Shown here piece after piece: positions 4,159 to 63,903 of a DNA stretch of 64,000 bases. Source of the DNA: Mesodorylaimus sp. YZB2_4 (taxonomy: Eukaryota; Nematoda; Enoplea; Dorylaimida; Dorylaimidae); the NCBI GenBank assembly GCA_030248295.1, contig JASANH010000118.1, forward strand, positions 62,001 through 126,000. Direction: 5' to 3'. Within the stretch, counting starts at the first letter, position 1. Every line of letters begins with the position of its first letter. A program made the position numbers and the translations under genes. Below the pieces are notes generated by a model. The model ran no database searches, was not told the DNA's origin, and saw only the letters and a program-made list of their open reading frames with translations.

Positions 4159-6447
4159 ATGTCCTTATTAACCACGCATAACGTGCACAAGCGATTTGTG
4201 GACCAATCGGGTGCTGGGTCGACGGACGACGGCCGTTTGCAAGGATTGGACGGACCAACTTTAACCTTGTTCTACGAATTGCTAAGATCGCTTCAGAATT
4301 CTTCCCCATCAGGAAATGCATCAGCATTTCAACTAAAACCTATATTCATGCATAATTATTTATTTTTCTCCTTCCTGTACGGTCTGCTCGGCTTGGCGGG
4401 TGAGTATTACAAGTGCAGCCTTTTTTTCGAGATGCTTGCTCATCCAGGAAACCGTGCACTGCTAAATTCACAGCCAAGGCTTCATGAAAGGCGCCACTGC
4501 ATAACTCACTATCTAGTTAGACACCTGGCATTTTGCTTCTTCTTTCTACGAGCTCGTTTTTCATGCACTGCCATCAGTCATTGAGACGATTCCTGTCGGT
4601 TACTATTGTGTAAGAACCTCATATCTGTTCTTTTGCCAAACACTTGAAGCGAAACGCGGGGTTCCTAGACTACTCAGAGCTCTAATATCCGCGCAGGAGG
4701 GTTCGAAATAAACCGATAAACCTCATAATGAATCTCCTTAGAGAGTGCAAGTGGCTAATCATGTGAGGGAGCTAACTTAGAAACGAGCCTCTAACACTCG
4801 ATGGGAACTATAGTATGGCTTATTTGTTAGGCACGTCCTTCAGAAAAACGATACGCCCGACGGCCAGACCGTCTATCTCACGATCAGCCCGCAGACGTCT
4901 GTAGTATTTTCAGAAACGAAACATGCACCTAAAATTTGTGTTTTCTAGCTGACTAGGATAGATCGCAAAAAATAAATGATCGTAGTGTTCAGGAAGGCAG
5001 GATACTAATGAGGTGGCGGACCCCTGGGTCACATAGTGTCAAGTGCTTCGATTTAGTCTTGCGCTCATTCCTTGCCTTTTAGGCTTATTTTTAAACGTTT
5101 ACTTCATATGGCGCAATATTCGACTTAAAGTCTACAAAAGTTCGCTCTACTATTTCCTGATCCATATCGCTATCACACACGTGCTGACATCGGCACTAAT
5201 TCTTCCCACTTCGCTGGCCATATTGTTATCTCGATACTGGATCTTTGGCGATTTCATGTGTTACTCATTGACAATGGTGCAAGACTTGCCGAGTCGAGTA
5301 GTCCTCCTTCTGTTCGTCCTGATCGCTATCGATCGATATCGGCAATTCGCATATAATTCATTGGATGCTTTGTCGAAGCACGGATGCGTGATCGGGGTCT
5401 GGTTGATCTCGTCTTGCCTAGCCTTCCCGGCTTGTGTCTTCGTAGAATTTTATGACATGTTCTCCTATTTCAAGTTGAACATGCTGCGAGGCATTGGACT
5501 GTGCGTGGTCAATAATCACAGCATGGAAGAATACGCTCGTGCCATGTTCGTCGTGGTCTACGTGGTTCCGCTGGCAGTTTTTGCCTTCGCATTCACTCGG
5601 ATCTCGGTCGAATTGCCAAAGCAGGACCAGCCTGTTGTCTTGGCGCACCTGCCCACGCAGTCAGCGAATAACACGGCTGATGGCGGGGCCGAAGACTGGC
5701 CGCTGGCACCCAGTGCTCTGGACACTGGTTCAGTCAATGCCGATGTGGAACGAAGAATACAACGATACTTGACAGCTTGCGGAGTGGTCGTGGCCCTCAG
5801 CAGCTTACCGCTCAATGTCATGTCGGTCATACAATTTGGGCTGACTGAGGACTATGCTGACAAATCAGCCATGTACGACATGACTTACGCCATATTTGTG
5901 TGGATTAGCTTCTTGCCTACAGTGTGCATCCCAGCCCTGTGCTTGGCAATGGTCAGTCTGGGAATGTCCAATGCTTATTTCTTAACTAACGCCTTTTTCC
6001 TTTCAGATGTCCGCGGCAGGATGTCCATTGTTCTACCGCTTGATGAAACGATGGCGCGAAGGTCCCGCAGCTGACTATGTCCGCCGTTTCAGCGATTTTG
6101 CATCAACTTCAGCCTCCAGTATGATGCGTCTTTATCCAAGAACGGGACCCAATGCCCAGACTGCTGAATCGGCCGGCACCACCATGACCAATCTCAGTCG
6201 TCACAGTCAATCGATGTTCTCATCGCGAGCCACTGGCCTGAGTGCGCTGACGATGAGCTCAACGTGCCCCAATGTTGAGAAAAGAGTCCGCAAACCGTCC
6301 GCCGAAGAATCGATTGCGCTAATGCAAATAAGGAACAGCCGGAACGGACGTCGGCTATCGATGAATCCAACCACATCGGAAACCGAAAGGCAGCCGCTAA
6401 GACGGGCTTCCCTCGCGACAACAGCGTCCACTTCAATGGCCCCCTAA
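4159..6447 (+). CDS. Rhodopsin-type GPCR 1 (probable peptide receptor)
   Basis: This is a seven-helix plasma-membrane receptor. I join three exons: 4159-4399, 5083-5951 and 6007-6447, giving about 516 residues. The first donor is GTGAGT and its acceptor follows ccttttag. The join rebuilds helix 1 (YGLLGLAG then LFLNVYFIW), which is the main support for starting at ATG 4159. The N terminus has N-glycosylation sites (NSSPSGNAS). The helix 3 end reads AIDRYRQF, a DRY motif. Helix 6 has SLPLNVMSV. Helix 7 ends in CPLFYRLMKR, a degenerate NPxxY. The last exon adds a long Ser/Thr/Arg-rich cytoplasmic tail suited to phosphorylation. The SLPLN and DRYRQ features recall neuropeptide (NPY/NPF-like) receptors, but the ligand cannot be assigned. 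Confidence 0.75.
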
Positions 6448-6618: not shown

Positions 6619-7951
6619 TCAGACCAGCAAGAACCAGAAGCCTAGAGTGCGTGATTTATTTTCAGTTTTCGAAGTACCCACCACCTGCTCTGATGCACAT
6701 ATCCATACGCTCGAACCATTTATCAAAACAAGTCTTGAACATTTCCTTATGTCCTTCAAAACAGTATTCATCTCTACCACTGCTTCTTTTGCACTCGAGA
6801 AGCGCTTTCCACGAAGTTGATTCTTCGTTTTTGGAAACAGGTAGAAGTCGCAAGGAGCCAAGTCTGGACTATATAGGGGATGGGTGACCAACTGAACGTC
6901 GTGTTCATGCAAAAAATCCAGCGTTCTGGCAGCTGTGTGGGCAGACGCATTGTCGTTGTGAAGCATGACTCCACGAAGACTAGTATGTGGCCGCTCTTCC
7001 TCCAAAGCCTTGAAAACGGTGGGTAAACAAATGTCACAGTACCAGTCTGCATTGACTGTCCTCCGTTCCTCGAAGGGAACTGCCGCCACCAACCAGACTT
7101 GTCTGAAGAAAATTGCCACTATCTGTTTCCCAACACTTTTGGCTCTGACCACTTTCGTTGGATTGGGTTCATTTTCGAATACCCAACCTGTGGACTGCTG
7201 CTTGGTTTCTGGCTCGTAGTTATATATCCAAGTTTCATCGCCACTGAGGATGTCGTTGACACGTTTTGATTTGCCTGATTGAACTTGTCCAACATAAACT
7301 TGCACCAGTCAACACGAGTCTCCTTTTGCTCACTCGTCAACAAATGGGGATCCACCTCGATGCAACTTTCCTAACGCCCAAATGATCGTGCAAAATTCTT
7401 GCCACTGATGCCGATCCAACAGGATACAGTCCTGCTTTTTCATATTGGCATAGCGTAGCTTCTTTAGGGAGAATTATCAGCATAGTAGCTGCTCTTATAC
7501 TTTTTTTTATGATGAGAAGCCATGGTATCTCAGCGAGTAGTTTTATTTTTCAACCCCCAAAGTCTCCTCTAATTCGTGATACGTAATGTAGGTGTGACTA
7601 AAAAGACAAAATCTGCACCCGCTGTATAGTCACCACGGCCTTGTGTATTTTCATTAGCACATCACTGGGTTCATTTGGTTTATTGAACTGGTTGGATGCT
7701 ACAGTAGAAGCAACTATTAGAAATTAATGCTCTGGTAGATGGGATCAAAGCTTTGTACGTAGGCCACTCCATAAGTTCTTCGTTCCGTGATCAGTTCCCT
7801 GGCCCGCTCGATATTTTCATGGGTCACTGCGTCGTGAGGACGACCAGAACGTGGCTCATCTTTGAATGAAGTCCGCCCTCGCTCGATATTTGAGGCCCCG
7901 TTTAAAATCATAGAAGATCATACCACGAAAATTCTCTTCTGTGGGCTCCAT
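6619..7951 (-). pseudogene. Mariner transposase pseudogene
   Basis: The cut-and-paste DDD transposase is recognisable in pieces. The N terminus from ATG 7951 contains NFRGMIFYDFKRGL. The next piece has DEPRSGRP and ITERRT. After removal of the 181-bp insertion the frame continues as TYHELEETLGVEK. Further on come VASRWIP and LLTSEQKETRVDWC, then the catalytic region with GDETWIYNYEPETKQQS (first Asp), MLHNDNASAH (second Asp) and YSPDLAPCDFYLF (third Asp), as in DD34D mariners. At least three disruptions separate these pieces, so no functional enzyme can be made. Confidence 0.85.
7591..7771 (+). mobile_element. 181-bp TA-flanked insertion inside the mariner transposase (copy A)
   Basis: The insert begins ggtgtgactaaaaagac and ends ggccactcca, with TA on both sides (7589-7590 and 7772-7773). 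Removing it with one TA restores a continuous mariner reading frame, so its borders are exact. The ends are weak inverted repeats (GGTGTG-ACTA against GGAGTGGCCTA). About 20 bases of its right end match the outer part of the host mariner's own terminal repeat. The same sequence occurs inverted at 8126-8193 plus 12689-12809 (copy B), where it runs directly into the mariner end. It is either a small non-autonomous element or mariner-flanking DNA mobilised by aberrant transposition. Confidence 0.75.
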
Positions 7952-8186
7952 GGCTGGATATGCAAAAAACTAAGATGCCTTGTCTGTCTAGCTTCCCCTT
8001 TCAGACTGCTCGCTTCTAAATCGATACTCTTACTCATACTCACTAGAGGAAAGTTCCTGTTTAACGTTAAATTTATGACAGTTTTGTTTCCTAACCGTGA
8101 CCGTTCATGCTGGTCTAAAAACTTATGGAGTGGCCTACGTGCAAAGCTTTGATCCCATCTATCAGAGCATTGAGATTTCTAATGGT

Positions 8187-8193
8187 TACTTCT
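8187..8193. repeat. LINE target-site duplication, 3' copy
   Basis: Plus-strand tacttct directly abuts the poly(T) run that marks the LINE's A tail. The partner is at 12689-12695. The last base is ambiguous with the tail, so the duplication is 6 or 7 bp. Confidence 0.8.
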
Positions 8194-11100
8194 TTTTTTT
8201 TTTTTTTTATTTTAAGCAAACTACTAATTTCTAGGTTTGGCTCAACATATTAGGATTCACAAAACGGCCTACCCAAACACAGAAAGGGAAAAAAGTAAGA
8301 TAACTACATAACTACTCAATACACTTTAGAGATGACAACTTTGCAAAACGTTCTTGGAACATGCTTGGTGTCAGGATATATCTAGCTCGTTTCGTTAAAA
8401 CTTTTAATCGTGTTACCAAGGAGTCCCACAGATCTACTACATCCCCTTTATTCTCGTAATCGGTTCTGGCAAACCATATACACCTTTGGGCCGACTGCAC
8501 AACCATGTTTGCGATCGAGGTGACATGGTTGCAATTTTTACTTGCTACGCCAAAAATTTTATTCTCCTCACTGACCATCAGGGACGGGTCCATTTCGCGC
8601 AAGAGGCGCTGCACCCTTTCCCAGAAATGCTCTGCTCGTGGACATTGAACGAAAACATGGTACACATCCTCATGTTTAAGCAGACCAAGCGCTGTCCTAC
8701 AGTATTTACAGTTTGCATCAACCTCCGAGAAGTGCGAAATCTTGCTTCTGGTGTATAATGCTTTGTAGAGCATAGAAAAGTGTATACTGCGTGTAAGACC
8801 ATCAACGTATTTCGTTTTATTCAGTCTCCAATATGAGGAAAAATCGATTTTCTCACTTCTCAACTTTTCCTTCCAGTAGTCCTGCATTGCCTTTGTGGCC
8901 TTTCCGACCTTTTTCCCCATCATATGTTCGTAGAACAACTTTGTCTTAAGGCACTTTGCTTGGTAACTCTTTTCGTCCAAACTTATTCTGTCAAGGTCAA
9001 TCATAGAGAAATTGGAAGCTATTACAGCCCTGCGAACATCCTTGTAAAGATTTGGAGCTCGGATATTTTTTAGGTCCCTCAGCTTGGCATGTCGCACCTT
9101 TTCAAAGAAATAATCAAAGGCTGAATGCCAAGCTGCCTTTTGTTTTGCCAATAGTCTTCGCATAAGGAGCATCAGCCTGAAAGCCATTATTCTGGTGTTT
9201 ATATCCGGGTACGCAACTCCACCCTGCTCCTTGCCCCTTTTTAGTATTAACTTATTTATCATATTAACTTTCGATGGATACCAGAAATATCCATCTATGT
9301 GCTTCTCAACACTACGCTGAAAATCGAGTTCTGGAGCAATTACAGATGCTAAATACCAAACTTTGGAGAGAAAGTATGTGTTTACCACATGAATCCTTCC
9401 AAAATAAGACATGTCGCTGTGTGGTGTCTTGCTGCTTAGCGTCCCTATATGCTCTCTCACTGCCCTCCAATTGTCCGTTATTTCCATCCCAGCCCTGGAA
9501 AACACAAACCCGTACACTTTGACCTGGTCCACCAGCAGGTCTACCAAGTCATTAGATATTTCCTTTTCGTTCATGGAGCCTAGAGCCAAGATTTTTGTTT
9601 TTGCCGGTTTGAGTGTTGCGCCTGACGCATTTCTAAACTTATCGTAAATCTCAACCACACGATGTATTGATCTTGAATCAGCCACTATGAAATTGGTATC
9701 ATCCGCGTAATTACTAATTTTTATTTCTTCGCCTAGTAAGTCTACCCCTTGCACAGTCCTGTCCCTTCTTATAAGATTGGTTACCGTCTCTGACACAAGG
9801 ACGTACAACAAGGCCGACAAAGGGCAGCCTTGCCTGATCCCCCTGCTAGGCAAGAACGGCGATGAGATGTACCCATTCACCTGCACTGCCGTTTTGACCA
9901 TACCTGGACAATAGATCACTTTAATCCAGTTTTGAAAGCCCTCCCCAAGTCTAAAATGCTCTAGGACTTTGTGCAAGTACTCCCATTCCACAATGTCAAA
10001 AGCAGTCATATGGTCAACCGACAAAAGCATAGCTGCTTTGTCAGCTTCATTTATATACTCGACCGCGTTATAAAGGGTGAGCACCCCATCCCTGATATCT
10101 CTGCCAGGCACCGCACAGGTTTGGTCAGGATGTACTATCTTGCCCATAACCTTCCTCAATCTCATCACTAGAACCTTCGCCAAGATCTTATAATCAACAT
10201 TTAGGACCGTTAAAGGCCTCCAGCTCGATCTTTGTGCTTTGTCCCCTTCTCCCTTATACAGCTGTGAGATGACCCCGAAGTAGCAAGACGATGGAAGAAA
10301 ACCCAGCATCGATGAAGCTTCGTACAATCTGCTCAAAATTTTGCCCATCTCAGCGATGTAAAACACGTAGAATTCGATCGGTAGTCCATCTAATCCAGGA
10401 GACTTCTTCCGTTGAAAAGAGCGTATCGCATCTCGTACCTCATCTTCTCCAATACTATCTCCCAACATCTCCCTGTCCACTGCGTCTGCCATCCCATGCG
10501 GTGGTTGGCTCAAAAATTCAGCTGCCGCCTCGGCATTTATTTCCCCCACCGTTGTAAACAAACTAGCATACTGGCTCCTGACTTCTCTAATTACTTCCAG
10601 CTGATCCTCATACAAGGTACCATCAGCCCCTCGAATCGAATATACTGCCCTCGCTTCCGCCGAGTTTTTTTGCATTAGTTTAGCGGTCGTCAGCGTGAAC
10701 TGATCAGTTGCCAAGTCTCTGAAATGTGTTTTACTTAACCTTCTCCTAACCTCTTCACGATCTAAAGCCCTTAGCCTATCCCTGAGGTCCCGAAATTCTG
10801 ATTTCAGTAACTCACTTGATGGATGCGAACTCAACCTTTCCTTCGCTTTTTCTAACTCTCTCTCTAACCAGAGTCGCCTTTGCCTATACTCTCTGACAGT
10901 CTTCTGTTTTCGGGCCTTACATAATGCCCCTATCTCCTGCTTACACTGCTCCCACAAAATTATAACCTCTTCATACTGGGCTGTGCTTATTTTAACCTTT
11001 AGTATCTGTAACTTTTCCCTGACACACCTTTGCAATAAATCGTCTCGAGCAAAAGAGTCAATATCGAGCTTCCAGTAAGAAGGCCCTCTTCTTATTTTTG

Positions 11101-12688
11101 CAAAGGCTACCCTACACTCTATCTCAAAAATTTTATGGTCCGACCAGCCAGTATTAATGAACCTGTGCTTTACATAACAATTGACCATGTTTTCACTACC
11201 ATATATCCTATCCAGGCGTCCCTGGGTTTTTGAGCTATGGGCCAAATGTGAAAATTCTCTTTTCTCTGCATGATGTATCCGAAATATATCACGCAGCTTT
11301 AGTTTCGAGGCTAGTTTTCGAAATTCCTTCAATCCGCTTTCAGGGTAAGTGGTGAGCTCGCTGCGATCTAGTTCTTTTGACTCTACGAAGTTGAAATCTC
11401 CAAGGCATATACATGCATCATGATACCTGAACCTTTGCAAAGTCGTCTCGTACAATTCATCATAAAAAACCTTCCTTTGCACCTCCTGAGCAGGCGCGTA
11501 GAGGCCAATAATTAGAAAGATTTTGGTCTCATAATTCACGCTCAAAACTACAGCACGTCCTGGTACGCTAGTCAGTCTCATTACTTGCGAAAAAAGAGAG
11601 TTTCTGTTAACCAACACACATACACCCGCACTATAGTCGTCCGAGAAGGCGTGATGGATACTAAATCTCTGCTCAAAAATGCTGTCAAAATAAGCTGCCT
11701 CCTTGGCACTCCTGAAGTGCGTTTCTTGTAAACACAGTATCTCATAATGTTTAACGAGTTCATAGGTAACAAGAATTTTAGGTATTTTATCTCTCAGTCC
11801 CGCTGCATTGTAAGTTGCTAAAGTGATTTTAGTTCCCGTTTTCTGATAGGGGAAAAAAAGAAAAAAAACCAACAAACAGAAGCAAACGGTCCTAGTATCT
11901 AAGCCGCACTTGGTGCCAGGACGACAGAACTAACATTTCTTACGTGGATTCAACGTCTCCTCATGTTGCTGATCGTCTGTGCTCGAGTCACCACTCGTAC
12001 TTATCTTCCGTTTGTTCTTGTCCAATCTCCTCTGTTCTTCATCGACTTCCTTCACCTCATTCTCGTACCTCGTCAACGCCATCATTCGATCTCGCAGTTG
12101 TGTCAGCAGCTGGCCAAAAGCATTTCGGCCTCTCCACTTTCCCGGGTCATGGATGTCAGGATCGTTTCGAGCCAAGCCCACTCCCCACCGGGTGTCACTC
12201 GGATTCGCCTCCACCAGTGTGCTTGGAGCTGTCCTGAAAAGAGCCTTGCGCAGTTCAGGGTTATACTCAAATTTTTTCTCATTTGCCTTGATCAACGCCT
12301 CCGTTGCAAACTCCATCCAATCGCCGTGCTTTTCCACATCCCATTCTATCGTCTCTCCCAGTTTCTTCGCCTGTGCTGCCGTTTTCGCCTTCAAGATCTT
12401 CGTTACCATTGCCTTATCCCCCACCTTTTCTGCTTTCGTCTTGAACAAAAACTGCTCCGTCGATGAATAGCCCTGACTGTCAATCGTGAAAGCACACGGG
12501 TAATGATTCGAAAAAGGCGATTCCTTGGTGTAAAAAGGTATATATTGTGTAGATTCTCCTGTAGTCGTTACTGTTGACCTTGCTCTTTGAACCACTGGTT
12601 GGCCATTGGTCAGTGCTTGCAAAGGTGGGAAATCTGCATCTTGAATTCCGTTGCTTGGTTCGATTATCGCAGCTACGGGCTTCGACTG
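8194..12688 (-). mobile_element. LINE retrotransposon with a NADAR-domain first frame, 5' truncated
   Basis: This non-LTR retrotransposon is in minus orientation. It is bounded by a target-site duplication (tacttct on the plus strand at 8187-8193 and 12689-12695) and ends in a 15-16 A tail at 8194-8208. It has a NADAR-domain frame, then an endonuclease-reverse transcriptase frame, and about 0.1 kb of 3' UTR. The 5' end at 12688 falls inside the first frame without an ATG, so this copy is 5' truncated. The single apurinic-type endonuclease and the C-terminal CCHC suggest the L1/Tx1 group. The long second frame is undamaged, which implies recent insertion. Confidence 0.88.
8312..11929 (-). CDS. 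LINE endonuclease-reverse transcriptase (ORF2)
   Basis: The open frame runs from just after the TAG at 11930-11932 to a stop at 8312 (1187 codons from the TTG at 11875). Domain order: apurinic-type endonuclease (TYNAAGLRD, LCLQETHF, CLGDFNFV, RLDRIYG, GWSDHKIFE) over roughly residues 15-240; a coiled-coil linker rich in Arg and Glu; reverse transcriptase with KSPGLDGLPIEFY, AFDIVEW, GIRQGCPLSALLY and the catalytic YADD near residue 722; and a C-terminal CCHC (CKYC, then HVFVQC) near residues 1040-1075. It nicks the target and copies the element RNA there. All catalytic motifs look intact. There is no ATG before about residue 97, already inside the endonuclease domain, so it probably lacks its own start codon. 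Confidence 0.9.
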   Translation of the reverse strand, partial: FCRPGTKCGLDTRTVCFCLLVFFLFFPYQKTGTKITLATYNAAGLRDKIPKILVTYELVKHYEILCLQETHFRSAKEAAYFDSIFEQRFSIHHAFSDDYSAGVCVLVNRNSLFSQVMRLTSVPGRAVVLSVNYETKIFLIIGLYAPAQEVQRKVFYDELYETTLQRFRYHDACICLGDFNFVESKELDRSELTTYPESGLKEFRKLASKLKLRDIFRIHHAEKREFSHLAHSSKTQGRLDRIYGSENMVNCYVKHRFINTGWSDHKIFEIECRVAFAKIRRGPSYWKLDIDSFARDDLLQRCVREKLQILKVKISTAQYEEVIILWEQCKQEIGALCKARKQKTVREYRQRRLWLERELEKAKERLSSHPSSELLKSEFRDLRDRLRALDREEVRRRLSKTHFRDLATDQFTLTTAKLMQKNSAEARAVYSIRGADGTLYEDQLEVIREVRSQYASLFTTVGEINAEAAAEFLSQPPHGMADAVDREMLGDSIGEDEVRDAIRSFQRKKSPGLDGLPIEFYVFYIAEMGKILSRLYEASSMLGFLPSSCYFGVISQLYKGEGDKAQRSSWRPLTVLNVDYKILAKVLVMRLRKVMGKIVHPDQTCAVPGRDIRDGVLTLYNAVEYINEADKAAMLLSVDHMTAFDIVEWEYLHKVLEHFRLGEGFQNWIKVIYCPGMVKTAVQVNGYISSPFLPSRGIRQGCPLSALLYVLVSETVTNLIRRDRTVQGVDLLGEEIKISNYADDTNFIVADSRSIHRVVEIYDKFRNASGATLKPAKTKILALGSMNEKEISNDLVDLLVDQVKVYGFVFSRAGMEITDNWRAVREHIGTLSSKTPHSDMSYFGRIHVVNTYFLSKVWYLASVIAPELDFQRSVEKHIDGYFWYPSKVNMINKLILKRGKEQGGVAYPDINTRIMAFRLMLLMRRLLAKQKAAWHSAFDYFFEKVRHAKLRDLKNIRAPNLYKDVRRAVIASNFSMIDLDRISLDEKSYQAKCLKTKLFYEHMMGKKVGKATKAMQDYWKEKLRSEKIDFSSYWRLNKTKYVDGLTRSIHFSMLYKALYTRSKISHFSEVDANCKYCRTALGLLKHEDVYHVFVQCPRAEHFWERVQRLLREMDPSLMVSEENKIFGVASKNCNHVTSIANMVVQSAQRCIWFARTDYENKGDVVDLWDSLVTRLKVLTKRARYILTPSMFQERFAKLSSLKCIE

Positions 12689-12787
12689 TACTTCTACTGT
12701 AGCATCCAACCAGTTCAATAAACCAAATGAACCCAGTGATGTGCTAATGAAAATACACAAGGCCGTGGTGATTATCAGCGGGTGCAC
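11930..12787 (-). CDS. LINE first frame: NADAR (YbiA/DUF1768) domain protein, N-terminally truncated
   Basis: The open frame has 285 codons from a GTG at 12787. The first 33 codons belong to the host 181-bp repeat, not to the LINE, so their apparent signal peptide is accidental. LINE-derived residues start at about 34. Residues about 82-232 form a NADAR domain: FYTKESPFSNHYPC, then SSTEQFLFKTKAE with the conserved Glu at about 111, NPELRKAL, LVEANPSDTRWGVGL, and KWRGRNAFGQLL. The tail (233-285) is basic and Ser-rich. NADAR proteins are N-glycosidases; characterised members remove ADP-ribose from guanine or act on ribosylated riboflavin intermediates. All family hallmarks that I can recall are present. 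The first in-frame ATG is at about residue 127, inside the domain, so this copy cannot make an intact protein on its own. Confidence 0.85.
   Translation of the reverse strand: MHPLIITTALCIFISTSLGSFGLLNWLDATVEVQSKPVAAIIEPSNGIQDADFPPLQALTNGQPVVQRARSTVTTTGESTQYIPFYTKESPFSNHYPCAFTIDSQGYSSTEQFLFKTKAEKVGDKAMVTKILKAKTAAQAKKLGETIEWDVEKHGDWMEFATEALIKANEKKFEYNPELRKALFRTAPSTLVEANPSDTRWGVGLARNDPDIHDPGKWRGRNAFGQLLTQLRDRMMALTRYENEVKEVDEEQRRLDKNKRKISTSGDSSTDDQQHEETLNPRKKC
12689..12695. repeat. LINE target-site duplication, 5' copy
   Basis: Plus-strand tacttct marks the truncated 5' end of the LINE. In copy A of the 181-bp repeat the corresponding sequence occurs only once, as expected of an empty site. Confidence 0.8.
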
Positions 12788-13273
12788 ATTTTGTCTTTTT
12801 AGTCACACCTAAGAGTGATGTAAATTCTTTCGATTTTCTCGATCCGCTACGTCACTTTTTCTCATATCCTATGACTTGTAAGGATGAGTATTGAGCACTA
12901 TGGAGAAATAACATTGTCTGTCCTAAACCATCCTCATTACGAACTGAGCCTGTAAATTGTCGACTTTAAATGAACAAAGTGTTCCCTGATCCAATAGAGA
13001 ACATCGGTGCCAGCTGGAGCCAGAAAGAAAATGCCATTCGCACTTTTCTCTTGTGAGACTGCGTGGTCGTTCTTTCGAGAGATATTTCCTTGATTAAATC
13101 TTCGTCACGAACTTAAATTTTGCTTTTGTGGGCGGGCGCCAGATCATTTACTGGATTACTTTGTCAGGTGCGACCGTATTATCTCAGACCAGAAGAGTCC
13201 GGTAGATGGCGTTATATTTCATCCACCTGTTTCTACTGTATTCTGCTCATCCATAATCGATCACGTTCACTAC

Positions 13274-13327: not shown

Positions 13328-14341
13328 ATGTCAGTCAATAATTCGAGTTCACCTGTTCCCTGGTGTTTTACCTCTGCCTCCTATTCGAAGATATCCGACG
13401 CGGCCAAGTACACCACCTATTTCGGCCTAATGCCCGTATATGTTGTGATCGGAATTTTCGGCCAAGTCGTGTGTTTAATAGCTTTTCGAAAACAAGCGAA
13501 GAAAGAAGCAGCTTATTGCTATCAAGTGTATTTGGCTGTAGCTAAGACAATCGAGATGAGCACATTCGCCTTCTTTTCTCTGACCTGCAAGTGGCTGTCA
13601 GATATTGACGGTTCTGGAGCACTGTGGTACATGAGTAGCTACGCGCTAACCTGGATATCGGCTCATGTTTCCATCCCTCTCATGAACTGGTCGTTCTGCT
13701 TCTCTCTCTTCATTTCGATAGCCATGTCCGCAGATCGGGTGTTCGGTTTATGGAAACCGATGGCGTATAAAAAGAGGACAAGTAGGTCACCTCAGTACAT
13801 CGCCTTAGGCGTGTCTATTGTACTCGGATTCATAATCAGTGTGCTCGATTGCTTTCGCTTTTACGTATTTTGGACTGATGGCCGGTACGTAAGAAAAGTC
13901 GACCAAACTTTTGTAGCAAGTCCTCTTGCAGCCGGTTTCGCGAACTTGAAAACCTTGACAAGATGCACGGCCGTCCTGGTACTCCTTATTTTAAACTTCG
14001 TTATCCTCAGATTATATCATCTGAAGGTAATCAAGCAAGCAGTCAAAGTATTTAATAATAACAACGAAAGAGAGCAGCGTCGACGGGCTAATGAGAAATC
14101 GCTCACTGTGCTGACCATCGTCCAGTCCTTGGTGACCATCTGCGCTATCCTACCATTGACTGTGTACTACGCTATCGTCTTTATTTCACCCCCATTTTCA
14201 ACCTGTCCTGGTCCCTTGGTAGCCACAATCGCCGATGGAATATTAGAAATCAGTGAAATGACTAATTTGGGGTTTTTATTGATCGCGTGCAAATCGTTTC
14301 GTTCGATGGCGCGCAATGTTTTACGATCCGGGTCAACTTGA
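13328..14341 (+). CDS. Rhodopsin-type GPCR 2, single exon
   Basis: The gene encodes 337 residues from ATG 13328 and no intron is needed. Seven hydrophobic helices are visible: YVVIGIFGQVVCLIAF (1), YLAVAKTIEMSTFAFF (2), FCFSLFISIAMSADRVFGLW (3, with DRV in place of DRY), IALGVSIVLGFIISVL (4), AVLVLLILNFVILRLYHL (5), LTIVQSLVTICAILPLTVYY (6) and EISEMTNLGFLLIACKSF (7, no NPxxY). N-glycosylation sites lie in the short N terminus (NNSS). It resembles lineage-specific invertebrate orphan receptors. Ligand and G protein are unknown. A tRNA-SINE-like repeat follows directly downstream. Confidence 0.8.
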   Translation: MSVNNSSSPVPWCFTSASYSKISDAAKYTTYFGLMPVYVVIGIFGQVVCLIAFRKQAKKEAAYCYQVYLAVAKTIEMSTFAFFSLTCKWLSDIDGSGALWYMSSYALTWISAHVSIPLMNWSFCFSLFISIAMSADRVFGLWKPMAYKKRTSRSPQYIALGVSIVLGFIISVLDCFRFYVFWTDGRYVRKVDQTFVASPLAAGFANLKTLTRCTAVLVLLILNFVILRLYHLKVIKQAVKVFNNNNEREQRRRANEKSLTVLTIVQSLVTICAILPLTVYYAIVFISPPFSTCPGPLVATIADGILEISEMTNLGFLLIACKSFRSMARNVLRSGST

Positions 14342-16583: not shown

Positions 16584-17639
16584 ATGGATAATGAGACTGG
16601 CAACATGAACGAGACAGATCATGTTGAATGTTCCTTTGATCCTTATTGGATATACGCACTGGTGGTACCATTTTTAGGTGTCGTATTCAATGGCATCTTA
16701 TTGTTCATCTGCATATCGATCGCCCGAGGACATCGTCCACGTCGTCGAGCATCCGTCAAGTGGACTCACCAACTGACCGATTATCTCCTTCACACAAAAA
16801 ATATGGATGATCCGACGACCTCATGCGTCGACCCGTTGCCCGAAAATGACTTGAGCCACCAACCAGAGTTCGCACTTAACTCATTTGTAGCTAACTGCGC
16901 GTCCTCGACTTTACTGGCCTCCTGTCTTCGTACAATCACGACCAGCTATTTATTCACGTTGAACTATGTCCTTTGCCCGACAGCCCCCAGCGAGTATTCT
17001 CAGGCGAGCCAGGTTATGGAAATCCTCTTATACGCTCAGCACAGCATATTCAACGTGGCTTATGTCAATTTTCTGATCGTTCTTAATTTGGATAAACTGC
17101 TTTACATCATGAAACCGCTGCATTATCGCAGCGTCATGACTCGCAGACGGGTAATCATTGTGTGCTTGATCACTTGGGTTTTGTCATCTGCTTGGCTCCC
17201 TTTATACTTTTCCCAAAACGAAGCTGATGCAGTTCGCTGGGGAACTATCCTGGTCACTGTGCTCATGGTCGGACCATCCATCTTTTGCTTAATTACATCT
17301 ACCATACTAGCAGTGGTCGTATTCAGAGTGCAGATGCAGGATCGACTGCGTTTCAACAACAGTAACGTTCCCATGATTTCTTCAAATTCCGCTTACTGCC
17401 TCTATTGTAAATCAGTCTTTCGGCTATTTCAGTCTGTACTTTGGACTTGCATCACGAGCTTACCCCATCCATTGGCCATAATCATATCGTACTATGCGTC
17501 CGTTGACGACCCGAGTGCCCATGCATTCCTCAAATTTGTCATTGGCTACTTATCGATCGCATATTTCTCGGGCACGCCTTTCATGATCATGCTAACATAT
17601 CCAGCATATTGGAGGCGTCTGAAGCTATATTGTGTGTGA
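16584..17639 (+). CDS. Rhodopsin-type GPCR 3, single exon
   Basis: The gene encodes 351 residues from ATG 16584. The N terminus carries NMNETD, an N-glycosylation site. Helix 1 is YALVVPFLGVVFNGILLFIC. A long basic and polar first loop follows. Helix 3 ends in VLNLDKLLYIMKPLHY, where DKL replaces DRY and KPLHY is typical of family A receptors. Helix 4 is VIIVCLITWVLSSAWLPLYF. Helix 5 is TILVTVLMVGPSIFCLI. Helix 7 ends MIMLTYPAYWRRLK, a TYPAY variant of NPxxY, with almost no cytoplasmic tail. Together with receptors 1 and 2 this makes three different orphan-type receptors within 13 kb. Their sequences are too different to call this a recent tandem array. Confidence 0.8.
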   Translation: MDNETGNMNETDHVECSFDPYWIYALVVPFLGVVFNGILLFICISIARGHRPRRRASVKWTHQLTDYLLHTKNMDDPTTSCVDPLPENDLSHQPEFALNSFVANCASSTLLASCLRTITTSYLFTLNYVLCPTAPSEYSQASQVMEILLYAQHSIFNVAYVNFLIVLNLDKLLYIMKPLHYRSVMTRRRVIIVCLITWVLSSAWLPLYFSQNEADAVRWGTILVTVLMVGPSIFCLITSTILAVVVFRVQMQDRLRFNNSNVPMISSNSAYCLYCKSVFRLFQSVLWTCITSLPHPLAIIISYYASVDDPSAHAFLKFVIGYLSIAYFSGTPFMIMLTYPAYWRRLKLYCV

Positions 17640-60254: not shown

Positions 60255-62002
60255 AAACAGAAGTTGCCTGCAAAGAAAAATAATGCGTTAGTAAATCAAG
60301 AAAAACCAAAACACAAAAAAAAACGAGATGCTAGCCGCCACAATGAACTAAGGTTTACTCCAAAGCCTCCAATACTGCATTGCGCGCTTGAGACTCTGCG
60401 AGCTGTTCCAACTCAGCCATAGCCACGAGAATATTAGGCTTCCTCGACGAGTGTTTCTCCTTGTTGGCGAAATATTCCTCGACGTCATTCTGATGAACAT
60501 ACGCCTGTCGATTCCGATCGTTGAAAAAGTACACCAAAACCCATGGTCCCCTTGTACGCGGCTTCGGCCCCAAAGCTTCCGATTCTGGCAAAACACGAGC
60601 AGGCCACCATGGGACATGTCTCATCTTCGCCCAAACTAACGAGCCAGGAGGAAAGGCTGTCAACCCACCAGGTGTAGAAATGCCTCCTTCCTCTCCTCCA
60701 ACATCTACCCATTCGTCTTGATCGCTAACAACGCAAGTCTCATGATCCGTGATCGCATCCTGTCTTGATGCTGACGCAGCGCCACTGGGTGTCTGTACTC
60801 GACCAGACACGTCTCCACGAAACAGCTGCAATTGGTTTACGTGAACCAACTTATCCGATCCAGGCTGAAGTAGAGGACGAATGCACGCGGTTACAGGCGA
60901 AGGCATTGCAAGAATTCTATAAGGCCCCAAGAATCGATCCAGTAATTTTGTCGACAAGCCTCGCGGCGCTGCGTTTCTCTTGACCATCACCAATGATCCA
61001 ATCTTGAATGGTATTCGATGAACTGATTTGTTATACTGCTGGGCTTGAGCTTGCTGTGACTTTGCGATTTCTTCCGTTACAATCCTGTATGCGTCTGTCA
61101 ACTGCTGCTTTAACTGCGTCACATAATCTATATGCAAATACTGTTGAGTTCCGTCCAATCCAAAGACACGGTCAATAGGAAACGACAAATCACGACCATA
61201 CACGAGTTGAGCTGGCGAATACCCAGTCGACGAATGCACGCTGGTGCGAAATGCGAACAAAGCAAAAGGAATGAAGACATCCCAGTCTTCTTGATGCGCA
61301 CTCGTGTAGACGGCGATGCAGTCGATCAACACTTTGTTATATCGTTCCACTTGTCCGTCACATTGTGGATGATAGGCCGTGGTGGACAACTTGCGAATAT
61401 TCAAAAATCGACATATGTTCTTCATGAGATCTGACGTAAACTGTGAACCCAGGTCGGTCAAGATTAAACGCGGCATCCAAACCGGCAAACCATGTGTTCA
61501 ACAAAGATACGAGCTACCGTCTCTGCACGCATATCTGCCATTGCAAAAGCCTCCGGCCATTTTGTGAACGCATCGATAAGGACAAGAATGTATGTATTTC
61601 CCAATCGGACGTCTTCAAGGACCGACTATGTCCATGCTGCACGTTCGAACGGAGACAACGGGTATGGAACCAAAGGAGCTTACCCCAGCGATGAGGTTGC
61701 TTTCTCGAGACAGATACACGACTTGCAGTATTGGTGTACATCTTTACGCATTGAGGCCATACACTCTCCTTCCAGACGTGAGTAAGTCGTCTTCTCCATG
61801 TGTCCAGCCAGGGATCGTTGTGATCTCACACCTCCTGTTCAAGCTAGCAGCAGAGCAATCCCCTTCATCACGCCCACCGCGATGTTGAGACGAAAACGCA
61901 ACTGACCAGCCCATCTTGCAGAATCTTCCCCATTTTTCCATCTCAGTATTTCGCTCCCTGTCTTCAGCACTCCTCTATCAAAAACGTGACAATACGATTT
62001 GT
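60255..62002 (-). mobile_element. Left arm of a large inverted repeat: Gypsy-type integrase region
   Basis: The reverse complement matches 62208-64000. The outer 1.1 kb differs by only a handful of substitutions. The inner 0.5 kb (61490-62002) carries many single-base deletions relative to the right arm and is about 48 bases shorter. It contains the damaged integrase copy described separately. The outer border cannot be placed, because the right arm continues to the window end. Confidence 0.9.
60355..61488 (-). pseudogene. Integrase-PWWP gene, left-arm copy, frame broken at its 5' part
   Basis: The 377 readable codons equal the C-terminal two thirds of the right-arm protein: from ILTDLGSQF (second catalytic Asp) through the catalytic Glu in GQVERYN, to the PWWP domain. 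Upstream, the zinc-binding and first catalytic Asp regions are still recognisable (QPHRWGK) but shifted among frames by single-base losses. One lost C at about 61478 ends this frame. See the right-arm entry for domain function. Confidence 0.85.
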
Positions 62003-62207
62003 GTTCAACAGCGTGGCGCCTTTGGACTTTGTACCAGTCGTGGAGGAGAGCGTATCAGGCTGATGCCTGGCCATCCTGCACATCCTCTCCCCCCCTCCCG
62101 ATGGCGCCTTTGGACTTGCCGTCTTGGAAGAGCGTTTTGGAACGCTAGAGCATCTGAGACGAACTTCCTTCTTGGATGACCGTTTTTAAGCAACGTTCTG
62201 ACGTTTT
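62003..62207. other. Spacer of the inverted repeat
   Basis: About 200 bases separate the arms. They contain a direct repeat tggcgcctttggactt at 62014-62029 and 62102-62117 and a C-rich stretch between. No coding content is assignable. The ATG at 62176 lies here, outside the matched arms. Confidence 0.6.
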
Positions 62208-63903
62208 TACAAATCGTATTGTCACGTTTTTGGAGAAGGGGGAAGACAGGGAGCGAGATACTGAGATGGAAAAATTGGCGGAATCGTATTTTCTGCAAGA
62301 TGGGCCTGGTTCAGTCTTGCGTTTTCGTCTCACACATCGTCGACGTGGTCGCGTGATTGAAGGTTCGGCCATTGCTCTGCCTGCTAGCTTGCAACAGGAG
62401 GTGTTGGCAGCATTTCACAACGATCCACTGGCTGGACACATGGGAGAAGATCGTACTTACTCACGTCTGGAAGGCAGAGTGTATTGGCCTTCAATGCGTA
62501 AAGATGTACACCAATACTGCAAGTCGTGCCTCATCTGTGCTCGTAGAAAGCAACCTCATCGCTGGGGTAAAGCTCCTTTGGTTTCCATACCCGTTGGTGC
62601 TCCGTTCGAACGTGTCAGCATGGACATAGTCGGTCCTCTGAAGACGTCACGATTGGGAAATACATACATTCTTGTCCTTATCGATGCGTTCACAAAATGG
62701 CCGGAGGCTTTTGCAATGGCAGATATGCGTGCAGAGACGGTAGCTCGTATCTTTGTTGAACACATGGTTTGCCGGTTTGGATGCCCGCGTTCAATCTTGA
62801 CCGACCTGGGTTCACAGTTTACGTCAGATCTCATGAAGAACATATGTCGATTTTTGAATATTCGCAAGTTGTCCACCACGGCCTATCATCCACAATGTGA
62901 CGGACAAGTGGAACGATATAACAAAGTGTTGATCGACTGCATCGCCGTCTACACGAGTGCGCATCAAGAAGACTGGGATGTCTTCATTCCTTTTGCTTTG
63001 TTCGCATTTCGCACCAGCGTGCATTCGTCGACTGGGTATTCGCCAGCTCAACTCGTGTATGGTCGTGATTTGTCGTTTCCTATTGACCGTGTCTTTGGAT
63101 TGGACGGAACTCAACAGTATTTGCATATAGATTATGTGACGCAGTTAAAGCAGCAGTTGACAGACGCATACAGGATTGTAACGGAAGAAATCGCAAAGTC
63201 ACAGCAAGCTCAAGCCCAGCAGTATAACAAATCAGTTCATCGAATACCATTCAAGATTGGATCATTGGTGATGGTCAAGAGAAACGCAGCGCCGCGAGGC
63301 TTGTCGACAAAATTACTGGATCGATTCTTGGGGCCTTATAGAATTCTTGCAATGCCTTCGCCTGTAACCGCGTGCATTCGTCCTCTACTTCAGCCTGGAT
63401 CGGATAAGTTGGTTCACGTAAACCAATTGCAGCTGTTTCGTGGAGACGTGTCTGGTCGAGTACAGACACCCAGTGGCGCTGCGTCAGCATCAAGACAGGA
63501 TGCGATCACGGATCATGAGACTTGCGTTGTTAGCGATCAAGACGAATGGGTAGATGTTGGAGGAGAGGAAGGAGGCATTTCTACACCTGGTGGGTTGACA
63601 GCCTTTCCTCCTGGCTCGTTAGTTTGGGCGAAGATGAGACATGTACCATGGTGGCCTGCTCGTGTTTTGCCAGAATCGGAAGCTTTGGGGCCGAAGCCGC
63701 GTACAAGGGGACCATGGGTTTTGGTGTACTTTTTCAACGATCGGAATCGACAGGCGTATGTTCATCAGAATGACGTCGAGGAATATTTCGCCAACAAGGA
63801 GAAACACTCGTCGAGGAAGCCTAATATTCTCGTGGCTATGGCTGAGTTGGAACAGTTCGCAGAGTCTCAAGCGCGCAATGCAGTATCGGAGGCTTTGGAG
63901 TAA
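62176..63903 (+). CDS. Gypsy-type retrotransposon integrase with C-terminal PWWP domain
   Basis: The open frame has 575 codons and is partial, since protease and reverse transcriptase are absent upstream. The zinc-binding domain is H81-x6-H88 with C118-x2-C121 (FHNDPLAGHMG, SCLICARRK). The catalytic core is D150 (VSMDIVGPL), D210 (ILTDLGSQF) and E246 (CDGQVERYN), with exact D-x35-E spacing. A GPY-type segment follows (DRFLGPYRI, about 382-390). After an acidic linker comes a PWWP domain at about 476-540: PPGSLVWAKMRHVPWWPARV, then WVLVYFFNDRNRQAYV. PWWP domains bind nucleosomes, typically H3K36-methylated. Cage position 1 appears to be Val490 instead of Tyr or Phe, while W493 and F519/F520 are present. 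In chromoviruses this site holds a chromodomain. The product would insert element DNA and could steer site choice. The true start is uncertain because the first 10 codons lie in the spacer. Confidence 0.9.
   Translation: MTVFKQRSDVFTNRIVTFLEKGEDRERDTEMEKLAESYFLQDGPGSVLRFRLTHRRRGRVIEGSAIALPASLQQEVLAAFHNDPLAGHMGEDRTYSRLEGRVYWPSMRKDVHQYCKSCLICARRKQPHRWGKAPLVSIPVGAPFERVSMDIVGPLKTSRLGNTYILVLIDAFTKWPEAFAMADMRAETVARIFVEHMVCRFGCPRSILTDLGSQFTSDLMKNICRFLNIRKLSTTAYHPQCDGQVERYNKVLIDCIAVYTSAHQEDWDVFIPFALFAFRTSVHSSTGYSPAQLVYGRDLSFPIDRVFGLDGTQQYLHIDYVTQLKQQLTDAYRIVTEEIAKSQQAQAQQYNKSVHRIPFKIGSLVMVKRNAAPRGLSTKLLDRFLGPYRILAMPSPVTACIRPLLQPGSDKLVHVNQLQLFRGDVSGRVQTPSGAASASRQDAITDHETCVVSDQDEWVDVGGEEGGISTPGGLTAFPPGSLVWAKMRHVPWWPARVLPESEALGPKPRTRGPWVLVYFFNDRNRQAYVHQNDVEEYFANKEKHSSRKPNILVAMAELEQFAESQARNAVSEALE

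What the first reader, a model, noticed from the sequence alone, without database searches (positions are those of the whole stretch)
11930..12688. NADAR (YbiA/DUF1768) domain as the first reading frame of a LINE
Seen: a frame directly upstream of a LINE endonuclease-reverse transcriptase, within the same target-site-bounded insertion, carries the NADAR signature (FYTKESPFSN, STEQFLFKTKAE, LVEANPSDTRWGVGL, GRNAFGQLL). Known: NADAR proteins are N-glycosidases that remove ADP-ribose from guanine or act on riboflavin intermediates. LINE first frames usually encode RNA-binding chaperones. Inference: the element may carry an enzyme that clears ADP-ribose from nicked target DNA or from its own nucleic acid, countering host PARP-like or DarT-like modification during target-primed reverse transcription.
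Basis: partly seen in the sequence, partly recalled or inferred. Interest (0 to 1): 0.87.

Follow-up and report, generated by a model that had tools for sequence, protein, structure and literature searches.

The report
Jumping gene with ADP-ribose-cutting enzyme domain
A family of copy-and-paste jumping genes in a roundworm-like genome carries, joined to its RNA-binding protein, a well-preserved NADAR enzyme domain of the kind that cuts ADP-ribose off guanine, which hints that such elements may have to clean a chemical mark off their own RNA or DNA.

Summary
Window 12083-12526(-) encodes a genuine NADAR domain (PF08719, E=5e-32) upstream of an intact L1-like EN-RT frame (8312-11875), inside one 5'-truncated LINE copy (8193-12688; TSD GAAGTA). 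It is not a chance fusion: 47 merged loci of the same genome (nematode-like by cuticle collagens) match this frame, some as fragments, and 20 of 20 stretches fetched around the best matches have EN-RT directly downstream. Complete siblings show that the window lacks half of ORF1: full ORF1p is about 480-500 aa, RRM-like fold + CCHC knuckle + NADAR, so NADAR is added to the RNA-binding protein and does not replace it. NADAR is under strong purifying selection across 7 subfamilies (omega 0.039; omega=1 rejected), travels with ORF2, and keeps the catalytic Glu/Lys/Glu. Two arginines that hold the pyrophosphate in Phytophthora NADAR are replaced. Best reading: an ORF1p-tethered glycosidase for guanine-linked ADP-ribose or a similar adduct on element RNA or cDNA; selection is shown, chemistry inferred. 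NADAR in LINE ORF1 is already in print in brief (oyster Tx1 LINEs, PMC12477816); the RRM-CCHC-NADAR order, the host, the selection evidence and the altered pocket are additions.

The parts
8193..12688 (-). LINE copy, 5'-truncated, with A-tail at its 3' end (low coordinates)
   Evidence: junctions, A-tail and 6-bp TSD; 99.5% DNA identity over 4477 bp to the copy in L009
12689..12694 (-). target-site duplication, 5' side (GAAGTA)
8187..8192 (-). target-site duplication, 3' side (GAAGTA)
11930..12688 (-). ORF1, C-terminal part only: linker, NADAR domain, charged tail; RRM-like and CCHC parts missing by 5' truncation
   Evidence: no N-terminus match near it on C267
12083..12526 (-). NADAR domain (residues 88-235 of the 285-aa ORF); catalytic-residue equivalents E111, K118, E193
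   Evidence: PF08719 E=5.1e-32; residue mapping to residues named in PMC11543638
12689..12787 (-). first 33 codons of the listed ORF: not LINE, but target DNA (arm of a long inverted repeat)
   Evidence: 98% match to 7589-7710 in inverted orientation
8312..11875 (-). ORF2: endonuclease + reverse transcriptase, open throughout; no ATG upstream of the endonuclease
11135..11818 (-). endonuclease domain (Exo_endo_phos, residues 20-247)
9509..10240 (-). reverse transcriptase domain (RVT_1, residues 546-789)

Best explanation
The window holds a recent, 5'-truncated copy of an L1-like LINE family whose first protein, when complete, is an RNA-binding-type ORF1p (RRM-like fold, then CCHC knuckle) with a NADAR domain as its C-terminal half (shown by sequence and model). 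The NADAR domain is an old, selected and co-inherited part of the element (shown). Most likely it is an active N-glycosidase that ORF1p carries onto the element's RNA, and perhaps its cDNA, where it removes ADP-ribose or a related adduct from guanine so that the template can be translated and reverse-transcribed (inferred). The writer of that mark, a host transferase or chemical damage, is unknown.
Against: No activity was measured. R79 and R93 of 8bau, which hold the pyrophosphate, have no arginine in any of the 16 genome copies (R79: E 10, K 3, G 2, D 1; R93: A in 15, gap in 1), and Y84/D86 are also replaced, though alignment there is unsure because of a 2-residue insertion; so the substrate may not be standard ADP-ribose. 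E. coli YbiA, described as active on guanosine-ADP-ribose (PMC11125620, passages), also differs from 8bau at K50, K75, Y84, D86 and R93 in this alignment, so such changes do not by themselves mean inactivity. No DarT-like writer was found in the genome. Synonymous sites are saturated and the codon model had kappa fixed at 1, so the omega values are rough. Copies are related, so residue counts are not independent. One copy, L021, has Gly at the E125 place, in a locus whose ORF2 is broken.
Confidence: 0.5

Rival explanations
1. NADAR in ORF1p is a binding module, not an enzyme: it docks the RNP on ADP-ribosylated sites, such as PARP-marked nicks, or just binds nucleotides, and so helps integration.
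For: A review reports that PARP1/PARP2 are recruited at L1 integration sites and that their loss lowers retrotransposition (PMC8535693, passages). PARP-family matches exist in this genome (10 matches on 6 contigs, 9 over the cut-off). Two pyrophosphate-holding arginines are gone.
Against: Catalytic Glu/Lys/Glu equivalents are kept across divergent subfamilies and in 4 of 4 LINE-type homologues from other public records, species unknown (P0001, P0007-P0009); pure binding would not obviously need them. The lost arginines are themselves ADP-ribose contacts.
Confidence: 0.25
2. The domain is an N-glycosidase on a small metabolite (such as riboflavin-pathway intermediates) or on another base adduct; its value to the element is indirect.
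For: Bacterial and plant NADARs are described as acting on riboflavin-pathway intermediates (PMC11543638, passage). The altered pocket allows a non-ADP-ribose ligand.
Against: The domain sits in an RNA-binding-type ORF1p, where a nucleic-acid substrate is the economical expectation (inference).
Confidence: 0.15
3. Chance neighbour or chance fusion: a host NADAR gene that happens to lie next to a LINE, or one read-through capture.
For: The genome has other NADAR-like frames outside this LINE family (L037-L041).
Against: 47 merged loci, 20 of 20 fetched with EN-RT downstream, 7 subfamilies, purifying selection, compatible trees; a full-length homologue in another public record (P0007, 39% over 97% of the query).
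Confidence: 0.01

Closest known systems
Tx1 LINEs of Crassostrea gigas with NADAR-like ORF1 (mentioned in PMC12477816, Genome Biol 2025; passages seen)
   Same: A LINE whose ORF1 protein contains a YbiA-family NADAR domain.
   Different: The passage gives no ORF1 architecture, selection test or active-site analysis for the LINEs; the host is a mollusc. I could not compare sequences (Repbase not held) and did not test whether this LINE is of the Tx1 clade.
Ectocarpus Gypsy elements with NADAR at the N-terminus of Pol (PMC12477816, passages)
   Same: A retrotransposon that carries a conserved NADAR domain.
   Different: LTR element; NADAR in Pol, not in an RNA-binding-type ORF1p.
ORF1-like proteins P0003 and P0006 in public assemblies
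   Same: A LINE-ORF1-looking N-terminus (my reading by eye; no profile or PDB match supports it) followed by a C-terminal NADAR.
   Different: No CCHC match; coiled-coil-like N-terminus in P0006 (by eye). Their NADARs fall across a 100%-supported split from this LINE's NADARs (19 sequences, 8 copies dropped beforehand), which suggests separate capture.
YbiA-subfamily NADAR of Phytophthora nicotianae (PDB 8BAU)
   Different: R79, R93, Y84 and D86 replaced and a 2-residue insertion between the G78 and W89 equivalents.
Type I LINE ORF1 (RRM upstream of a CCHC knuckle; definition seen in PMC4120745, passages)
   Same: RRM-like fold followed by CCHC.
   Different: Carries an added NADAR. Another ORF1 type with an enzyme domain is the esterase type IV (same passages).

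Membership tests
NADAR / YbiA superfamily (PF08719) | profile match above the curated cut-off | tested here: met
   111.8 bits against cut-off 35.1
NADAR / YbiA superfamily (PF08719) | NADAR fold | tested here: met
NADAR, YbiA subfamily | catalytic Glu in the last strand (E125 of 8BAU) rather than Asp or His | tested here: met
   E193 in the window; 15 of 16 genome copies; rule from PMC11543638 and PMC11125620 passages
NADAR guanine de-ADP-ribosylase | hydrolysis of ADP-ribosyl-guanine | not testable with these tools
   needs protein; catalytic residues kept, two pyrophosphate arginines lost
LINE (non-LTR retrotransposon) | EN + RT frame, A-tail, target-site duplication, 5' truncation | tested here: met
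   TSD candidates of 8 to 14 bp in 3 siblings (L014, L018, L023) of 7 tried, a doubtful 6-bp one in L012, none in L015, L017, L019
L1-like superfamily of LINEs | ORF2 closest to L1 ORF2p; no RNase H | tested here: met
   human L1 ORF2p E=3.8e-70 against R2 4.4e-11 among PDB sequences; no RNase H match. Only L1 and R2 type proteins appear in that list, so this is coarse
Tx1 clade | RT phylogeny with Tx1 references | not tested
   no reference set at hand
[quoted passage not shown]

The most novel reading that the evidence does not exclude
Animal LINEs carry an ORF1p-tethered NADAR hydrolase because the host, or a normal cell process, puts ADP-ribose or a related adduct on guanines of element RNA or cDNA. 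Guanine ADP-ribosylation would then be a pressure on transposons in animals, with the retuned pocket fitted to that substrate.
Probability: 0.25. Interest if true: 0.85.

Novelty: new variant of a known kind. Interest (0 to 1): 0.6.

Why it matters
NADARs were the only hydrolase family found able to remove ADP-ribose from guanosine in RNA (PMC11833690, passages), yet their role in eukaryotes, animals included, is called unclear (PMC11125620, passages). A transposon that keeps such a domain under selection in its RNA-binding protein points to a nucleic-acid substrate met during retrotransposition and gives a testable system for guanine ADP-ribosylation in animals.

Tried and rejected
Rejected: chance fusion (47 merged loci, selection, 20 of 20 linkage). 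Rejected: the idea that the 285-aa frame is the complete ORF1; it is cut by 5' truncation and its first 33 codons are target DNA. Rejected: the idea that NADAR replaces the RNA-binding part. The difference between 99.7% ORF2 and 84-88% ORF1 protein identity to L009 looked like recombination; DNA identity is 99.5% over the whole match, so I read it as a frame break in L009.

Count of loci: one search gave 64 matches, 48 after merging. One of the 48 is the target-repeat fragment at window 7626-7715, not LINE, leaving 47; several of these are short fragments or tails without the NADAR core. 20 were fetched, chosen as the best-scoring after the window; apart from the window itself, 26 were not fetched, so the 20 of 20 count is on the best-preserved ones.

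Sibling test against my reading: 39 merged loci have the ORF1 N-terminus and 11 of them have no NADAR match nearby. I fetched 5 of the 11: two run into a contig end (L047, L048), one is internally rearranged (L046; 1642 foreign bases, no N), two are degenerate (L049, L050). The other 6 are matches of 60-402 bp that I did not fetch. No otherwise complete copy without NADAR was seen among those fetched. The reverse test from ORF2 did not complete, so NADAR-less relatives with a similar ORF2 are not excluded.

Trees: two EN groups (L013+L022 with L017+L018, support 100; these with L014+L015+L023, 97) are not recovered in the NADAR tree, where the competing branches have support 23-41. So co-inheritance is shown for the close groups and for the main split; deeper order is unresolved.

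Organism: no name is given by the tools. 133 cuticle-collagen N-terminal matches (PF01484; none of 14 control genomes rang) and no arthropod cuticle match (PF00379; no control rang either, so this absence is weak) point to a nematode-like animal; this is inference.

Literature: for the subject itself, (104 papers hold the terms, 20 listed; 311, 20 listed; 9 of 9 listed; 0; 3,166 hold 3 of 4 terms, 20 listed). In those listings only PMC12477816 joins NADAR to retrotransposons; listings were cut and papers outside the held library are not covered. Searches were for PARP and ORF1 types.

Selection sample: of 13 ORF1 frames (one per subfamily) went into the NADAR test and 5 into the N-terminus test; near-identical siblings were dropped. 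For ORF2, 4 of the 10 loci tried were used (8 of the 10 had a long open frame); the ORF2 step crashed and was redone. One search checked that the comparison fit had omega at 1.000; 16 of 18 loci kept (L026 and L028 dropped for short matches).

Negative structure detail: P0006 gave no match to L1 ORF1p in the PDB by sequence, so its ORF1 type is by eye only.

Full report
Check of the observation. The frame 11930-12787(-) encodes 285 aa with a Pfam NADAR match of 111.8 bits, E=5.1e-32, at residues 88-235. The next frame, 8312-11875(-), has an endonuclease and a reverse transcriptase domain. By sequence its nearest PDB chains are human L1 ORF2p (E=3.8e-70), far ahead of R2 (4.4e-11).

Edges. On the - strand the element starts at 12688 and ends in a run of A at 8193; GAAGTA flanks it on both sides (12689-12694 and 8187-8192). 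The 5' edge falls inside ORF1. The first 33 codons of the 285-aa frame belong to the target: 119 of 122 aligned positions match 7589-7710 in inverted orientation, so the LINE sits in one arm of a long inverted repeat. The window copy is therefore a truncated copy. It looks young: 99.5% identical over 4477 bp to the copy in L009, both window frames open.

Siblings. A search of the same genome (145 Mb, 1067 contigs) with the frame gave 64 matches, 48 loci after merging; one of these is the target-repeat fragment in the window, leaving 47, some of them short fragments. I fetched 20 stretches around the best matches; 20 of 20 have the EN-RT frame directly downstream on the same strand. Several groups hold near-identical long copies (98.0-99.5% in L014/L015/L023 and L017/L018/L019/L020), so the family moved recently.

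Selection. Among seven subfamily representatives, NADAR pN is 0.18-0.31 while pS is 0.76-0.95, that is, saturated. IQ-TREE's MG codon model gives omega 0.039 for NADAR, 0.057 for the N-terminal half and 0.089 for ORF2; fixing omega at 1 costs 266, 152 and 982 log-likelihood units. Kappa was 1 in all fits. With saturated synonymous sites the exact values are soft, but the rejection of neutrality is not. By pN, NADAR (0.18-0.31) is somewhat more constrained than the RNA-binding half (0.29-0.37).

Co-inheritance. Trees of the EN and NADAR domains for 16 loci recover the same six close groups ({WIN, L009, L010}, {L012, L011, L025}, {L013, L022}, {L014, L015, L023}, {L016, L024}, {L017, L018}) and the same main split. 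Two deeper EN groups (support 97 and 100) are missing from the NADAR tree, where the alternatives have support 23-41; there is no conflict supported in both.

Active site. Mapped onto 8BAU with residue roles from PMC11543638 (passages): E43 is E in 16 of 16 copies; K50 is K in 13 and R in 3; E125 is E in 15 and G in 1 (L021, whose ORF2 is broken); K75 16 of 16; D130 16 of 16; W133 15 of 16; W89 14 of 16 (one gap, one Q). R79 and R93, pyrophosphate contacts, are never R; Y84 and D86 are replaced, with alignment unsure there. Homologues P0001, P0007, P0008 and P0009 keep E43, K50 and E125 in 4 of 4; at R79, P0008 has R and P0009 K. The catalytic centre is thus kept and the far side of the pocket changed. 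E. coli YbiA, reported active (PMC11125620, passages), also departs from 8BAU at several of these places, so the changes argue for a different fit more than for loss of activity.

Wider range. The protein search found P0001 with the window frame and, with the full-length alignment, P0007-P0009, all from records without a species name here; I cannot say that they come from other species. P0003 and P0006 are other ORF1-like proteins ending in NADAR; their NADARs lie across a 100%-supported split from this LINE's NADARs, so separate capture is likely but not proven.

Test of loss. The ORF1 N-terminus was searched in the genome: 28 of 39 merged loci have NADAR nearby. Of the other 11 I fetched 5: two contig ends, one internal rearrangement, two degenerate copies. 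The ORF2-based search did not complete.

Mechanism. Shown: NADAR is a selected, co-inherited half of an ORF1p with RNA-binding-type domains. Inferred: it acts as a glycosidase on guanine-linked ADP-ribose, or a close adduct, on the element's RNA or cDNA. NADARs act on guanosine in RNA and DNA and not on phosphate ends (PMC11833690 and PMC11125620, passages). PARPs help human L1 (PMC8535693, passages), so simple PARP opposition is not favoured. The genome has PARP-type matches (10) and no DarT match, in searches that do not follow introns.

Known or new. PMC12477816 (passages) reports NADAR in Ectocarpus Gypsy Pol and in ORF1 of oyster Tx1 LINEs, and supposes a role in processing the RNA intermediates. 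The kind is therefore known. What is added here: a nematode-like host, the RRM-CCHC-NADAR order, evidence of selection and co-inheritance, and a shifted ligand pocket.

Noticed in passing
window 7589-8193 and 12691-12811: A long inverted-repeat DNA element (outer arms 7589-7710 and 12691-12811, 98% alike; inner arms 7706-7780 and 8117-8193, 90% alike) into whose arm the LINE inserted.
   Followed up: partly
window 11876-11929 and L009, L012, L013, L017, L018, L019: ORF2 has no ATG ahead of the endonuclease in any of the 7 loci printed (of 12 tried); in the window and L009 the open frame starts right after the ORF1 stop in the same frame, in L012 and L013 it is in another frame. How translation starts is unclear.
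   Followed up: partly
L039 (C38:609500-614000): A NADAR-bearing frame pair (1777-2847 +) lies beside a frame that looks by eye like an ADP-ribosylglycohydrolase (1-1041 -).
   Followed up: no
L040, L041 and, by match pattern only, C929, C765, C491, C936, C444, C134, C174: Apparently a multi-copy gene family, perhaps with introns, with a short NADAR; in L040 and L041 an SGNH-hydrolase-like stretch follows (by eye). Host family or another mobile element.
   Followed up: no
L038 (C230:15000-20000): Several NADAR-like units in a row in two long frames (by eye; two profile matches).
   Followed up: no
window 62176-63903 (+) and 60355-61488 (-): An integrase frame (H2C2 + rve) ending in a PWWP domain, and a second PWWP frame nearby.
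   Followed up: no
L011 (C120:1-9000) and L009: LINE copies as an inverted pair (L011), or with an inverted ORF2 piece on the 5' side (L009).
   Followed up: no
window 5043-6074, 13328-14341, 16584-17639: Long open frames with rhodopsin-type GPCR matches (the third below the Pfam cut-off).
   Followed up: no
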